DNA of 64,000 bases, taken from NCBI GenBank assembly GCA_013141055.1, contig JABFRS010000001.1:372001-436000 (forward strand), read 5' to 3'. A program made the position numbers and the translations under genes. Below, one piece after another: positions 57,041 through 62,461 of this stretch (its first letter is position 1; each line of letters starts with the position of its first letter). This stretch comes from Cyclobacteriaceae bacterium (GTDB taxonomy: Bacteria; Bacteroidota; Bacteroidia; Cytophagales; Cyclobacteriaceae). The notes beneath the pieces are model-generated. The model did no database searches, had not been told where the DNA came from, and saw nothing but the letters and a program-made list of their open reading frames with translations.

Positions 57041-57245
57041 ACATTAACTCTTCTTACTTTTCTTTGCTTGCCCAAAGAAAAGTAAGGCAAAAGAAAAGGC
57101 CCCACGAATGCTGCGCGACGATGATTATGTTGCCTTTCTTCTGATCATTAGTGCATCGTCTTGCGCCGCGCCATTCGTGGACGCCCGCCCGCCACGGCTA
57201 ACGGAGAACGTTCGGTGTTCAGGTTGAAGATTATGTTTCAGTCAG
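57041..57245 (+). repeat. dispersed structured repeat, copy 1
   Basis: About 205 bp, closely similar to 62178-62383 in the same orientation; the first 56 positions are identical. It opens with a perfect 14-bp hairpin (CTTACTTTTCTTTG, 57053-57066, and CAAAGAAAAGTAAG, 57073-57086; 6-base loop). A second stem pairs CCACGAATG (57102-57110) with CATTCGTGG (57172-57180) and inside it GACGATG (57117-57123) with CATCGTC (57154-57160). No reading frame of note. It lies between convergent genes. Confidence 0.9.
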
Positions 57246-57758
57246 TCCCAATTATATACAGAGCACAGTACAGTGGATAATTAAAACAGGCCCGCCTGTT
57301 CATACTCTTCTCAGATTTAAGAGTACCAACCCGCCAAGGCTCTCGAAGAACACTCACGATTCAGCTTAAAGATCATCTTTGAATCGGAAGAAAAAGGTCA
57401 TTTTCAGCGCTTAAACCCACATTTTGCATCTATGATTATCGCTTATCTATTGTAAATCAGATACTTAGCGTACACTTTTCGGAGTTTAATTAGGTTCTAA
57501 TTAGGTTCTAACTAGGTTCCAATTAGGTTCTACTTAGGTTATACCTAGGTTCTTAATAGGTATCAGTTAAGTAATAGAGATATTCCAATTATCCTTCAAT
57601 TAAGAAACCTTTAAATATCATTCACAATGCTGCCTGTCACTATACTGAATAGCTTTTCTTGTAAAGTGATCAGACGATGTCAGGGAAGGGATGAAAAAGT
57701 TAAAGGATCTGAAGCCAGGTAGTGGCCGCAGAAGGTTAAACAGGAAAGTTTAGGATGT
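57246..57758. other. remaining intergenic region with a tandem repeat
   Basis: The space between repeat copy 1 and the hypothetical gene ending at 57759 has no credible coding region on either strand. The only structure seen is the 11-bp tandem array at 57490-57566, listed separately. The whole interval from 56967 is 792 bp, the longest gene-free stretch of the window. Confidence 0.6.
57490..57566 (+). repeat. 11-bp tandem repeat, seven units
   Basis: Seven exactly spaced units with consensus TTAGGTTCTAA: units start at 57490, 57501, 57512, 57523, 57534, 57545 and 57556. The core TAGG is kept in all; the flanks decay to the right. Flanking sequence does not continue the period. Confidence 0.95.
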
Positions 57759-58316
57759 CTAGAACCTCTTCTGAAGTATCTCGCTCAGAATAAATGCCTT
57801 CTTAAAGCTTCTGGGATCTTTAAGATCTCTGAGGATCTCTTCGCGGATGCGCGACTTTGGTTCAGGCTGATAATTTTTAAACTGGTTGAAGCGAACAACA
57901 GTGTCTTCCAACTTCATCGTCTCTTCAAGCGAGGGCTTTACGAAAGCATACTTCGTTGCGTTCTCATACGTCTCGTAAATCTTGTCGTGCTTACGGTAGT
58001 CGTAGTTGGTATCTTCAATGGGTTTCTTCTTCTCGACGACTTCTTCTTCGTAGTCGTACGGCTTCCAGTCGGTTTTCTCCTCTTCGACGTATTCGGGCAC
58101 AGGCTCAGGAAGGCGCTGTGCTTTTTTGGAGCCTTCTATTTCACGGAGCAGATCTTCAAACGTAACGGGCTTGCTGACGGGGGGAGTTTCAGTTTCGTAG
58201 TCAGATTCTACCGGCCTTCTTTTCGGCTGTGCTGCCTCAGCGTCCTTCTTCCTTTTGCGGGCAAAAAGATATACGATGCCTATGACGATCCAGACTAAGA
58301 TTTTTAACTCATCCAT
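57759..58316 (-). CDS. membrane-anchored hypothetical protein
   Basis: A 185-residue protein with one N-terminal helix (MDELKILVWIVIGIVYLFA) followed at once by RKRKK, so the rest lies in the cytoplasm. The middle is a highly charged, Glu/Lys/Tyr-rich disordered stretch (VEEEKTDWKPYDYEEEVVEKKKPIED). The last 50 residues are the most conserved-looking (SRIREEILRDLKDPRSFKKAFILSEILQKRF). Similar C-termini occur in Cytophagales proteins of unknown role. A TACCTTTG box (58331-58324) lies only 8 bases upstream of the ATG. Confidence 0.75.
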   Translation of the reverse strand: MDELKILVWIVIGIVYLFARKRKKDAEAAQPKRRPVESDYETETPPVSKPVTFEDLLREIEGSKKAQRLPEPVPEYVEEEKTDWKPYDYEEEVVEKKKPIEDTNYDYRKHDKIYETYENATKYAFVKPSLEETMKLEDTVVRFNQFKNYQPEPKSRIREEILRDLKDPRSFKKAFILSEILQKRF

Positions 58317-58403
58317 GTGTTTCCAAAGGTATCAAATTAATCAGTTTATTAACCCTGTTTTTTACTGATTAAAGCAATGGTTTAAGGGCAAAAAAAACAC
58401 CCA

Positions 58404-58431
58404 TTGCGATTCATATTTCCTTCTATCTTTG
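58404..58431 (+). promoter_or_regulatory. Bacteroidota-type promoter of smc
   Basis: TTG 58404-58406, 17-base spacer, TATCTTTG 58424-58431 (exact). It rules out the longer start at 58429 and supports ATG 58468. Confidence 0.8.
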
Positions 58432-58467
58432 CCAACTTTATTATTAAGAATAACCACTTTTCAGAGA

Positions 58468-61400
58468 ATGCAGTTAGCTAAATTAGAGATCAAAGGGTTC
58501 AAGAGCTTTGCCGATAAAATTGTAATAAATTTTGACGAGGGAATCACGGGAATTGTAGGGCCAAACGGTTGCGGCAAGTCTAACGTTGTGGATTCGATAC
58601 GGTGGGTGCTGGGCGAGCAGAAAACCAGCGCATTACGCTCTGAGAAGATGGAAAATATCATCTTCAATGGTACGCAATCACGCTCTCCCCTGCAGATGGC
58701 TGAAGTGTCTCTGACGATCAACAATACCAAGAATCTACTTCCTACAGAATACGCTCAGATCACGATCACCCGCCGCCTGTACCGCTCAGGTGAAAGTGAG
58801 TATCTCCTTAATGGAGTGACCTGCCGTCTGAAAGATATCTCCAACCTGTTCCTCGATACCGGTGTTGCATCCAACAGTTATGCGATCATCGAGTTGGGAA
58901 TGGTGGATGATCTTTTGAATGACCGCGACAATTCACGTCGCACGTTGTTTGAAGAAGCCGCTGGGATTTCAAAATTCAAAAAGCGCAAGAAGGAAACCCT
59001 CAAGAAGCTGGAAGATACTGATGCCGACTTAGAGCGCGTCGACGATCTTCTTTTTGAGATTGAAAAGAACATGAAGAGCCTGGAGAAACAGGCGAAGCAG
59101 ACAGAGACGTATTACAAAGCCAAGGAAGATTATAAAGAGAAAAGCATTTTGCTGGCGAAAGTTGTCGTCAACAAGCAGAAGGAAAAATTCAATCATGTCA
59201 ATCAGCTGATCGAAGAGGAGAATGACAAGAAGCTGAAGTTTACAGCAGAGATCGCTGAGAAAGAAGCGTTGATTGAGAATGAGAAGACAGGTCTGATCAC
59301 AAAGGAAAAGACTCTCTCTACAAGACAAAAAGCGATCAATGATCATGTGACGAACATCCGTCATCATGAAAGTGAGAAGCAGATCAACAATGAACGTCTT
59401 CGTTTCCTCAATGATCGTGCTTCCAGCCTGAGAGATCAGATCGATCAGGACAAGAAGAGTGCCGAACGTGGACATTTCGCCATTGACAGTCTTCAGACAG
59501 AGCAACTTTCTTCACAAACGATCCTCGATGACATCGCTTCCAAAGCGGATACGATCAAGTCGGAGTACGAATCACAGAAGTCTGCTACTTCACAGTTGCA
59601 GGTTGATGTAGATTCATTACGCCAGGTTCATCGCGCAAAGCAGGAAGAACATTTTCAGACCAACAAGGATCTTGAGATCCGTGAAATACAGATCACTTCA
59701 CTGAAACAGGAGATTGATCGCGCTACAACTGATACTTCACAGAGAAGTGCAAGTCTGGTTGAATTTGAGAACAAGCTCATCTTATTACAGGAGGAGATCC
59801 AGGAGAAGACTGCTCAGCTTGACAAGATCAAGTATGAAGAGAACGAGGGACTGGCACGCATCAGCTCATTGGAGAAGACCATTGAGATGATCCGCGAGGA
59901 GCTTACCGAGACCGGTAGAAAGCTCGACGCCCGTCAGAACGAATATCAGTTAACGAAATCACTTGTAGAGAATCTTGAAGGATTTCCAGAAGCGATCAAG
60001 TTTCTGAAGAAGAAAGTTGAATGGACAAAGAATGCTCCACTCCTTTCCGACATCCTTACCTGTCCTGAAGAATACAGGGTAGCCATTGAAAACTATCTGG
60101 AGCCATACCTCAATTATTATATTGTTGATCACGAAGCGGAAGCTTACGATGCGATCAATATTCTGAGCGATGCAAGCAAGGGTAAGGCCAACTTCTTCAT
60201 CCTGGATGCATTCGAGAGATTTGTCTCCCATCCTACCCAGATCTATCAGAACGCATACCCGGCTACACAGATCATTGAGTTTGATCCGAAGTACGGCAAG
60301 CTGATGTCATTTATCCTTGACAGGGTTTACTTCTACGAAGGAGATCTGAAGCAAGTTGAAGCGGATGATAATAATACATTCATCACGAAGAGTGGCAAGT
60401 ACACACGCCGTCGTTTTAGTCTTTCAGGAGGTTCTGTAGGATTATTTGAAGGAAAGAAGATCGGTCGTGCCAAGAATCTTGAGAAGCTCAACAAGGAGAT
60501 CGGAGAACTCAATAAGAAACTGGAAGAAGTTCGTCATTCATTGCTGGACCGTCAGCGTGAGCTGGAACACTTAAGAAATAACAATTTCAAGGTTGCTATT
60601 GAAGAAGCTCAGAATGCTGCCAAGCAGGTGAATGATGAGTACATCTCTGTAAAGACCAAGAAAGAGCAGTTTGCTGAAATGATCAACAATGCCGACCTGC
60701 GCAAGGAAGACATTCTTGAGAAGATCGATGTGCTGGTAAGAGAGCTGGAAGAGCTTCAACCGAAGGCACAGTTCATCTTCAGTCAGCTGGAAGAGTTTGA
60801 AGGAAGAGTGAAGCAACTGGCGGATGAGCTATTCACACAGAATGATCTGCTGGAGCAAAAGGCAAATGCATTCAATGAGCAGAACATCTTCTTCCATCAG
60901 CAATCCAACCGGGTAAAGAGTTTAGAACAAGAGATACGCTTCAAGCAGGAAGCTGTTGAGCAAAGTATACAACGTGTTACGGCCAATTCTTCCGAGTTGA
61001 AGCACAACGAAGATGAGATCCGCACGATTTTCGAGAGCACACAATCCGGAGACGAAGAGCTGATCAAGCTTTACGCTCAGAAAGATGAAATGGAGCGTGG
61101 ACTCAATGAAGCGGAGAAAGATTACTATGCAGCACGTGGAGAGATCGACCAGGTAGAGAAAGACCTGAGAAGCATTCAGCACATGCGTGAAGGAATTGAT
61201 GCCATGCTGATGCAGCTTCAGAATGAGCTGAATGAAAGCAAGATGGAACTCAATTCCGTTAAGGAAAGACTTTCCGTGGAGTTCAATGTGGTGATGGACG
61301 ATGTGATCACACAGATCACAGAAGAAGAGAACGCACAGCTGTCAGGGACCAACGAAGAGAAGCTTCGCAATGAAGTAAGCAAGATCCGTGAAAAGCTTGA

Positions 61401-62010
61401 CAACATGGGACCAATCAATCCGATGGCCATGGAAGCATATAATGAGATCAAGGAGCGCAATGACTTTATCATTACACAAAAAGATGATCTTATCAAGGCA
61501 AAGGAATCGCTCTTCAATACGATCAGCGAGATAGAAGGTGTTGCCAGTCAGACATTTAACGATGCATTCCAGCGCATCAAGGAGCACTTTGTACGAGTAT
61601 TCAGATCCCTGTTCAACGAGGGTGATGATTGCGATATCAAGCTTAGCGATCCTTCAAGACCACTGGAATCGGAAATTGAGATCATTGCAAAGCCAAAGGG
61701 AAAACGTCCGTTGGGAATCAACCAGCTGAGCGGAGGAGAAAAGACCTTAACGGCTACTGCGCTGTTGTTCTCGATGTATCTGTTGAAGCCTGCACCGTTC
61801 TGTATTTTTGATGAGGTGGATGCTCCATTGGATGACGCCAACATTGATAAGTTCAATAATATTATCCGAAGCTTCAGCAAGGATTCACAATTCATCATTG
61901 TGACACACAACAAACGTACAATGACCACTACGGATGTGATCTACGGAATTACCATGGTTGAGAAAGGTATCTCACGCGTGGTGCCTGTGGATCTTAGGGA
62001 GCTAGCTTAA
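58468..62010 (+). CDS. smc: chromosome segregation protein SMC
   Basis: An 1180-residue SMC ATPase that compacts and resolves sister chromosomes. N-terminal Walker A GPNGCGKS (31-38) with the DSIRWVLGEQ helix, two coiled-coil arms (about 165-490 and 665-1000), the hinge (about 500-650), then the C-terminal signature QLSGGEKTLTATALLFSMY and Walker B CIFDEVDAPLDDAN with the D-loop. scpA and scpB are not adjacent. A strong hairpin follows the stop. Confidence 0.98.
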   Translation: MQLAKLEIKGFKSFADKIVINFDEGITGIVGPNGCGKSNVVDSIRWVLGEQKTSALRSEKMENIIFNGTQSRSPLQMAEVSLTINNTKNLLPTEYAQITITRRLYRSGESEYLLNGVTCRLKDISNLFLDTGVASNSYAIIELGMVDDLLNDRDNSRRTLFEEAAGISKFKKRKKETLKKLEDTDADLERVDDLLFEIEKNMKSLEKQAKQTETYYKAKEDYKEKSILLAKVVVNKQKEKFNHVNQLIEEENDKKLKFTAEIAEKEALIENEKTGLITKEKTLSTRQKAINDHVTNIRHHESEKQINNERLRFLNDRASSLRDQIDQDKKSAERGHFAIDSLQTEQLSSQTILDDIASKADTIKSEYESQKSATSQLQVDVDSLRQVHRAKQEEHFQTNKDLEIREIQITSLKQEIDRATTDTSQRSASLVEFENKLILLQEEIQEKTAQLDKIKYEENEGLARISSLEKTIEMIREELTETGRKLDARQNEYQLTKSLVENLEGFPEAIKFLKKKVEWTKNAPLLSDILTCPEEYRVAIENYLEPYLNYYIVDHEAEAYDAINILSDASKGKANFFILDAFERFVSHPTQIYQNAYPATQIIEFDPKYGKLMSFILDRVYFYEGDLKQVEADDNNTFITKSGKYTRRRFSLSGGSVGLFEGKKIGRAKNLEKLNKEIGELNKKLEEVRHSLLDRQRELEHLRNNNFKVAIEEAQNAAKQVNDEYISVKTKKEQFAEMINNADLRKEDILEKIDVLVRELEELQPKAQFIFSQLEEFEGRVKQLADELFTQNDLLEQKANAFNEQNIFFHQQSNRVKSLEQEIRFKQEAVEQSIQRVTANSSELKHNEDEIRTIFESTQSGDEELIKLYAQKDEMERGLNEAEKDYYAARGEIDQVEKDLRSIQHMREGIDAMLMQLQNELNESKMELNSVKERLSVEFNVVMDDVITQITEEENAQLSGTNEEKLRNEVSKIREKLDNMGPINPMAMEAYNEIKERNDFIITQKDDLIKAKESLFNTISEIEGVASQTFNDAFQRIKEHFVRVFRSLFNEGDDCDIKLSDPSRPLESEIEIIAKPKGKRPLGINQLSGGEKTLTATALLFSMYLLKPAPFCIFDEVDAPLDDANIDKFNNIIRSFSKDSQFIIVTHNKRTMTTTDVIYGITMVEKGISRVVPVDLRELA

Positions 62011-62056
62011 ATGAGGAAGGTCATGAGTGAAAGCTCATGCCTTCCTCATTTGTTTA
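62009..62056 (+). terminator. terminator of smc
   Basis: AAATGAGGAAGG (62009-62020), one bulged T, CATGAG (62022-62027), 6-base loop, CTCATG (62034-62039), CCTTCCTCATTT (62040-62051), then GTTTA. An 18-bp stem with one bulge; the left arm begins in the smc stop codon. Confidence 0.8.
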
Positions 62057-62060
62057 TTGA
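62021..62060 (+). repeat. 40-bp direct repeat, left copy
   Basis: Paired with 62422-62461; the last 28 bases (from GCTCATGCC at 62033) are identical and the first 12 differ at three positions. This copy includes the right arm of the smc terminator. Confidence 0.85.
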
Positions 62061-62177
62061 GTGCTGTCATTCCAGATCACAACTATTCAATGTAACAAAT
62101 CTTCAATAGTAATCTCACCGAAGTTATAGATAGTTCATTCACCCTGATAGCAACCACAAGCTTCCATCCAGTTCCCA

Positions 62178-62383
62178 ACATTAACTCTTCTTACTTTTCT
62201 TTGCTTGCCCAAAGAAAAGTAAGGCAAAAGAAAGGGCTCCACGAACGCTGCGCATCGATGATCGATTTGCAATTGTTCTGATCACTTGTTACGTCGCTTT
62301 ACGCCGCTCCGTTCGTGGACGTCCACGCGCCACGGCTATCGAACAACGTTCGCTATTCAAGATAATTATTATGTTTCAGTCAG
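62178..62383 (+). repeat. dispersed structured repeat, copy 2
   Basis: About 206 bp, same orientation as copy 1. The same 14-bp hairpin is at 62190-62203 / 62210-62223. The outer stem is CCACGAACG (62239-62247) with CGTTCGTGG (62310-62318): T-A in copy 1 has become C-G, a compensatory change. It lies between the convergent smc and CotH-like genes, within the interval bounded by the 40-bp direct repeats. Confidence 0.9.
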
Positions 62384-62421
62384 ACTCAACAATGACGACT
62401 TAATCAACTCACGTTAAGAGT

Positions 62422-62461
62422 TCATGGGTAAAGGCTCATGCCTTCCTCATTTGTTTATTGA
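62422..62461 (+). repeat. 40-bp direct repeat, right copy
   Basis: Right partner of 62021-62060. It contains the stop codon (62455-62457) of the minus-strand CotH-like gene, so the last three residues of that protein are encoded inside or against the repeat. Confidence 0.85.

What the first reader, a model, noticed from the sequence alone, without database searches (positions are those of the whole stretch)
57041..62383. Dispersed 205-bp repeat with a conserved hairpin and a compensatory base change
Two copies (57041-57245, 62178-62383) lie in the same orientation, 5 kb apart, each between the 3' ends of convergent genes. The first 56 bases are identical and form a perfect 14-bp hairpin. Downstream, sequence drifts but the outer stem is kept: CCACGAATG/CATTCGTGG in copy 1 is CCACGAACG/CGTTCGTGG in copy 2, a T-A to C-G double change. 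Drift with pairing kept argues for selection on a folded RNA or DNA form, not simple duplication. I see no coding frame in either copy. It could be a REP/MITE-type element, a 3' processing signal or a non-coding RNA.
Basis: seen in the sequence. Interest (0 to 1): 0.75.

Follow-up and report, generated by a model that had tools for sequence, protein, structure and literature searches.

The report
Repeat encoding a triple-helix RNA fold
The two repeats are copies of a scattered non-coding element, found in several bacterial phyla, whose opposite strand appears to encode an RNA ending in a knotted three-stranded helix; in bacteria that have the regulator CsrA it often also carries hairpins of the kind CsrA binds.

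Summary
In detail: two 205-bp copies, first 56 bases identical, a perfect 14-bp hairpin, a kept outer stem. The genome has 7 full and 10 partial copies. The hairpin core recurs, patchily and often many times per genome, in species named as Bacteroidota, Pseudomonadota, Desulfobacterota, Nitrospirota, Bacillota, Lentisphaerota and Fusobacteriota.

Comparison shows more than a hairpin. On the MINUS strand a pyrimidine tract precedes the hairpin, and bases before that tract pair with the hairpin loop: an H-type pseudoknot. The tract matches the hairpin's purine arm as a parallel third strand (U.A-U, C.G-C, in one genome G.U-A). In 147 distinct hairpins not selected on the tract, the purine arm departs from consensus at 40 positions and the tract follows at 37: three-way covariation for a major-groove triple helix.

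In Psychromonas the domain just 5' is Rfam's TwoAYGGAY RNA (predicted CsrA binder). Of 30 TwoAYGGAY matches examined, 22 carry the core on the 3' side, none on the 5' side. GGA hairpins occur in 11 of 18 csrA-bearing genomes, 1 of 18 without. The window's host lacks csrA; its copies have another 5' helix.

Most likely a dispersed RNA with a variable 5' protein-binding domain and a 3' triple-helix cap. Transcription here, function and mobility are unproven.

The parts
57041..57245 (-). Copy 1 of the element (RNA reads from 57245 down to 57041)
57053..57066 (-). P2b, purine arm of the main stem (minus strand CAAAGAAAAGUAAG)
57067..57072 (-). P2 loop, contains P1b (minus strand GGC)
57073..57086 (-). 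P2a, pyrimidine arm of the main stem (minus strand CUUACUUUUCUUUG)
57089..57096 (-). L1, third strand (minus strand UUUCUUUU), parallel Hoogsteen partner of P2b
57098..57100 (-). P1a (minus strand GCC), pairs with the loop of P2
57102..57180 (-). P0 5' domain: outer helix CCACGAAUG/CAUUCGUGG with internal stems, just 5' of the pseudoknot on the RNA strand
62178..62383 (-). Copy 2 of the element
62190..62203 (-). P2b of copy 2
62204..62209 (-). P2 loop with P1b of copy 2
62210..62223 (-). P2a of copy 2
62226..62233 (-). L1 third strand of copy 2
62234..62237 (-). P1a of copy 2 (minus strand GCCC)
62239..62318 (-). P0 5' domain of copy 2 (T-A to C-G double change against copy 1)
62018..62060 (+). 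left member of a 43-nt direct repeat (91%) that brackets copy 2; contains the hairpin just after the smc gene
62419..62461 (+). right member of the same direct repeat, 401 bases away

Best explanation
The repeats are copies of a dispersed, patchily distributed non-coding element read as RNA from the minus strand. Supported by comparison: (i) an H-type pseudoknot, order P1a - L1 (UUUCUUUU) - P2a (UUACUUUUCUUUG) - P1b in the loop - P2b (CAAAGAAAAGUAA); (ii) L1 matches the purine arm P2b base for base as a parallel third strand, so it should lie in the major groove of P2 as a pyrimidine-motif triple helix; (iii) a separate structured domain lies 5' of it and differs between hosts. Inferred: the triple helix caps the RNA's 3' side against 3'-to-5' exonucleases, in the way of MALAT1-type triple helices, and so makes a long-lived RNA whose 5' domain binds a host protein. 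In csrA-bearing hosts that protein is probably CsrA. In this csrA-less host the partner is unknown.
For: Triple: of 147 distinct hairpins found without regard to L1 (side chosen by T count alone; linker of 1-3 nt chosen for best fit), 125 score 7/7 for the rule T.A, C.G, G.T. In the 29 with a variant purine arm, 37 of 40 departing positions are matched by L1; mean 6.45 of 7, against 5.32 +/- 0.14 with L1s dealt anew among variants and 5.92 +/- 0.15 with L1s of consensus hairpins, none of 2000 as high in either. Variant pairs: AAAGAAA/TTTCTTT, GAGAAAA/CTCTTTT, AAGAGAA/TTCTCTT, AGAAAAA/TCTTTTT, AATAAAA/TTGTTTT. In G039 (33 copies, 22 parsed), plus-strand letters: all 7 C-G centres have G in the third run, 14 of 15 A-T centres have C. 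P1: mean pairing run 3.40 against 2.42 +/- 0.09 in 1000 shuffles, 78 distinct cores. Strand: of 26 non-Watson-Crick P2 pairs on the minus strand, 19 are U.G and 2 are A-C type; GGA-loop hairpins in 30 of 59 elements on the minus strand, 6 of 59 on the other. Known RNA beside it: RF01731 directly 5', same strand; of 30 RF01731 matches the core is 3' of 22 and 5' of none. csrA: 11 of 18 against 1 of 18, Fisher p = 0.0009. Spread.
Against: No expression data for this host; I saw no conserved promoter in passing but made no promoter search. All triple-helix evidence is comparative, and ssDNA could form the same triple. P1 is only 3 bp in copy 1. Some cores (Rikenellaceae, some Lentisphaerae, some Selenomonadales) show little P1 pairing. 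In P1, of 35 distinct cores where the two differ, 23 gain more from G.T on the plus strand and 12 more from A.C, which speaks for the plus strand. 15 of the 19 U.G pairs in P2 sit at one pair, and the scan's pattern limits which mismatches it can see. The flank 3' of the core folds better as the plus strand (54 against 39, p = 0.04). 7 of 18 csrA-bearing genomes show no GGA hairpin, and the csrA contrast follows phylogeny. The P0 outer helix is clear in G000/G006/G023, but across phyla the stem test is weak (8.59 against 8.12). In the count two of five measures do not exceed the shuffles. 3' protection is analogy only. Several phyla are represented only by MAGs.
Confidence: 0.62

Rival explanations
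1. A DNA-level mobile element: folded single-stranded DNA (hairpin plus triple strand) is recognised by a transposase or recombinase acting in trans, as for REP/MITE elements.
For: Patchy, many copies per genome, several phyla, intergenic, sharp edges; mirror-repeat pyrimidine tracts also form triple DNA (recalled); copy 2 is bracketed by a 43-nt direct repeat.
Against: No core beside the 12 Y1-transposase loci read of 16 hits in five genomes (one stray 9-mer). No recurrent neighbour gene (178 proteins, largest cluster 5). U.G rather than A-C changes in P2 and GGA loops on one strand point to RNA. No match in the phage collection; in plasmids only four records, all over 0.9 Mb.
Confidence: 0.2
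2. A CsrB/Rsm-type sponge RNA family (extended TwoAYGGAY) that spread widely; the copies in csrA-less hosts such as this one are relics or have been taken over.
For: Rfam clan CL00106 neighbour, GGA hairpins, csrA contrast; CsrA binding predicted in PMC4333381 (passages).
Against: Copies in the csrA-less genomes G000, G006, G023 and G039 largely keep P2, the triple and P0 through compensatory changes, so most are not decaying; GGA is absent in many hosts.
Confidence: 0.12
3. A 3' UTR or attenuator element acting on the neighbouring mRNA (processing, termination).
For: Both window copies lie 3' of a minus-strand ORF; right-hand gene minus 54, plus 37, none 13 of 104.
Against: Left-hand gene plus 45, minus 44, none 15 of 104; all arrangements occur, 11 of them divergent; no T-run after P2 on the RNA strand (by reading).
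Confidence: 0.06

Closest known systems
TwoAYGGAY RNA (Rfam RF01731, clan CL00106)
   Same: Directly 5' of the core on the same strand in Psychromonas; many copies there too (12 matches in each of two genomes)
   Different: Rfam's 168-position model ends before P2a and so lacks the pseudoknot and triple helix; the window copies have no AYGGAY hairpins and no Rfam match at gathering score
MALAT1/PAN-type 3' triple helices; telomerase RNA and SAM-II/SAM-V pseudoknots (recalled; for SAM-V the start of an abstract in a listing, PMC6061858)
   Same: Pyrimidine strand in the major groove of a U-A-rich stem; in MALAT1 an A-rich 3' strand is held by it
   Different: Different sequence and order of parts, bacterial, dispersed, no known ligand or poly(A)
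REP elements with Y1 transposase (RAYT)
   Same: Dispersed intergenic palindromes
   Different: No Y1 gene found beside a copy (12 loci read), different core, third strand
AaHKsRNA22 (RF02902) and Bp1_684 (RF02421)
   Same: Annotated sRNA families next to (L099, Aggregatibacter) or overlapping (L114, Burkholderia, twice) the element on the predicted strand
   Different: They cover flanking parts, not the core fold; how they were detected was not looked up

Membership tests
TwoAYGGAY RNA (RF01731) | match to the covariance model at gathering score | tested here: not met
   window: no Rfam match
TwoAYGGAY RNA (RF01731) | two hairpins with AYGGAY loops | tested here: not met
   by reading, no such loop in the window copies; present in Psychromonas relatives
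REP/RAYT | Y1 transposase gene flanked by the repeat | tested here: not met
   12 of 16 Y1 hits in five genomes read: no core
MITE | terminal inverted repeats and short target duplication at each copy | tested here: inconclusive
   no inverted ends seen by eye; 43-nt direct repeat around copy 2, none found around copy 1
Intrinsic terminator | stem followed by a T-run | tested here: not met
   by reading: P2 is followed by AAGAGUUAAUGU on the minus strand
Major-groove triple-helix pseudoknot | third strand covarying with the stem by triple rules | tested here: met
Major-groove triple-helix pseudoknot | Hoogsteen contacts seen in a structure | not testable with these tools
   needs probing or a 3D structure
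CsrA-binding sRNA | GGA in hairpin loops, in a csrA-bearing host | tested here: not met
   window host has no csrA match and its copies no such hairpins; met in 11 of 18 csrA-bearing genomes with elements
Integron attC site | attC core sites and a nearby integron integrase | not tested
   considered only in passing

The most novel reading that the evidence does not exclude
A modular RNA element has spread across at least seven bacterial phyla. Its constant part is a 3' triple-helix pseudoknot that protects the RNA, and its 5' domain is exchanged to suit the RNA-binding protein of each host (CsrA where present, another protein in Bacteroidota). It would be a bacterial counterpart of the MALAT1-type triple-helix cap and a new class of mobile RNA.
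Probability: 0.3. Interest if true: 0.92.

Novelty: new variant of a known kind. Interest (0 to 1): 0.74.

Why it matters
A base-triple network recovered from three-way covariation in natural sequences is rare (recalled). This one sits in an element shared by distant phyla. Rfam's neighbouring model stops short of it, and covariance models cannot express a third strand or a pseudoknot. It gives TwoAYGGAY a missing 3' half and a testable role, and it offers a bacterial system for asking whether RNA triple helices protect 3' ends.

Tried and rejected
Rejected: REP/RAYT (no core beside the 12 Y1 loci read); intrinsic terminator (no T-run, by reading); a partner gene beside the element (no recurrent neighbour); carriage by phages or ordinary plasmids (viral contigs were not searched). 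A simple second pairing of P2a with the third run was rejected: in G039 the third run changed G to C where the stem became A-T, which breaks such a pairing but fits a G.U-A triple.

Led nowhere: the empty-site test behind smc (of 29 other same-genus loci none has both core arms, two have one stray 9-mer, and the window's next gene was found in none); two Pseudoalteromonas comparisons (breakpoints not at the element's ends); paper searches for the core letters (only unrelated papers) and for a bacterial triple-helix repeat or its link to CsrA (listings only, none fitting); a paper on the Aggregatibacter sRNA (none found; PMC9577009, passages, concerns another family). The cross-phylum test of a P0 helix next to P1 was weak.

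Limits: the counts use 105 of the 120 loci (L056-L160); one search used 80. One search kept only elements with L1 score 5 or more; the unselected count is, which uses the loci held. For one search I chose 13 copies: 7 full copies of G000 and 3 each of G006 and G023. One search examined 30 of the 33 RF01731 matches (those with loci); in one of its 8 misses (L200) the core lies nearby on the other strand. In one search loci were tied to assemblies partly by accession prefix, by hand, and only 59 of 104 oriented elements could be used. G351 and G353 count as GGA-negative there though one search gives them sub-threshold TwoAYGGAY matches. ORF calls in GC-rich loci are crude. No tool names the window's host; Bacteroidota is inferred from a T9SS sorting domain (that T9SS marks this phylum is recalled). 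Several phyla rest on metagenome-assembled genomes.
Full report
OBSERVATION. The two copies are as described. The genome (4.65 Mb, 2 contigs) has 7 full and 10 partial copies, all hit on the + strand as stored. The host's phylum is not told; a T9SS sorting domain in the ORF right of copy 2 points to Bacteroidota (inference). On 13 aligned copies from G000, G006 and G023 the 9-bp outer stem pairs in every cell, with two double changes; sliding one side by 1-3 columns drops pairing of the whole structure from 90.6% to 37-51%. In that test the number of pairs with a change on both sides (4 against 4.2) and of further pair types (10 against 13.9) does not exceed the shuffles; cells paired (90.6 against 87.9%), cells with double changes (17 against 7.4) and the covariation score (0.129 against 0.083) exceed all 500.

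SPREAD. 5 of 58 genomes (its own and relatives) have a match to the 205 bases. A BLAST match adds a replicon of Ilyobacter polytropus, Fusobacteriota. Exact-arm matches are patchy: 3 of 296 genomes of its own phylum, its own included (reversed-pattern control 1 of 296), and 11 of 229 genomes in the class of Xanthomonas sp. F10, the centre included (control 0), with up to 18 copies in one genome there and 33 in G039.

FOLD. Of 111 cores in 105 loci, 104 have an A-run on exactly one side and 7 on neither; the run is A4-G-An in 103 of 104. The bases after it pair with the loop: mean run 3.40 against 2.42 +/- 0.09 shuffled. The A-run is not a second pairing partner of the hairpin but its mirror: when the stem's tract changes, the run changes in mirror register. 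Read on the minus strand this is a pyrimidine third strand parallel to the purine arm. The unselected test (147 hairpins; 37 of 40 departing positions obeyed) and the named classes show U.A-U, C.G-C and, in G039, G.U-A states. That G is the usual third-strand base for a T-A or U-A step is recalled, not from a call; PMC3711454 (passages) treats U.U-A as a mismatch there. Exceptions: 11 of 147 hairpins score 5 or less of 7 (8 of them 4 or less), and 3 of 40 positions fail. The Fusobacteriota copy, read by eye, falls into the AAAGAAA/TTTCTTT class.

STRAND. U.G outnumbers A-C-type mismatches 19 to 2 in P2 on the minus strand, though 15 of the 19 are at one pair. The 5' domain folds better on the minus strand in 64 of 99 loci, on the plus in 34 (p = 0.025), while the other flank points the opposite way (54 plus, 39 minus, p = 0.04). 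GGA hairpins: 30 of 59 elements minus, 6 of 59 plus. P1 wobbles lean to the plus strand, 23 to 12. On balance minus.

LINK TO A KNOWN RNA. RF01731 matches end right before P2a on the same strand in L073 and L121. Of 30 RF01731 loci (22 above the gathering score; 33 matches in all) the core follows in 22 (17 of 22) and precedes in none. Three of the 8 misses, L220, L221 and L223, show L1 and P2a but have P2b replaced by another sequence. PMC2864571 (passages) lists TwoAYGGAY for human gut, gammaproteobacteria and Clostridiales; PMC4333381 (passages) predicts CsrA binding; PMC11701678 (passage) lists it among families whose structure was improved with R-scape. In the passages seen none mentions a pseudoknot or triple strand for it; I did not read the papers whole.

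HOST CONTRAST. csrA is found in 18 of 40 genomes searched, and not in G000, G006, G023 or G039. Of the 36 genomes with assigned elements, GGA hairpins occur in 11 of 18 with csrA and 1 of 18 without. Phylogeny confounds this.

CONTEXT. Neighbour genes show no fixed orientation and no recurrent family. Copies occur singly, in clusters, and in tandem units: about 550 bp in G000 and about 748 bp in Pseudoalteromonas.

READING. A dispersed RNA element with a constant 3' triple-helix pseudoknot and a variable 5' domain. The fold is supported by comparison; RNA rather than ssDNA is likely; 3' protection and protein binding are inference. In the window's host the partner of the 5' domain, and whether it is transcribed, are unknown.

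Noticed in passing
window 62018-62060 and 62419-62461: A 43-nt direct repeat (91%), the first member being the hairpin just after the smc gene, brackets copy 2; it could be a scar of insertion or duplication.
   Followed up: partly
window 57477-57550: Tandem array with an 11-nt period (AATTAGGTTCT) a few hundred bases right of copy 1.
   Followed up: no
G000 contig 2, 328411-330123 (L037): Tandem units of about 550 bp with half copies of the element joined to another structured repeat.
   Followed up: no
L008-L012 downstream of the partial copies: A second dispersed repeat of the form ACAGGCCGCTCCTACGGAGCTTA / ACAGGTCGCCCCTAACGGGGCTTA follows these partial copies.
   Followed up: no
L220, L221, L223, and further copies in L203 and L213 (Psychromonas): P2b is replaced by a shared unrelated sequence, as if another repeat were fused inside the stem.
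   Followed up: no
L309 (Pseudoalteromonas piscicida large replicon): Core arms at a spacing of about 748 bp, three times, as in a tandem repeat; one unit at the related place in strain NC201.
   Followed up: partly
Proteobacterial loci such as L105, L066, L071, 3' of P2b on the RNA strand: By reading, a short hairpin CGCC-loop-GGCG, in some with a GNRA loop, follows P2b in many proteobacterial copies and was not seen in the Bacteroidota copies looked at.
   Followed up: no
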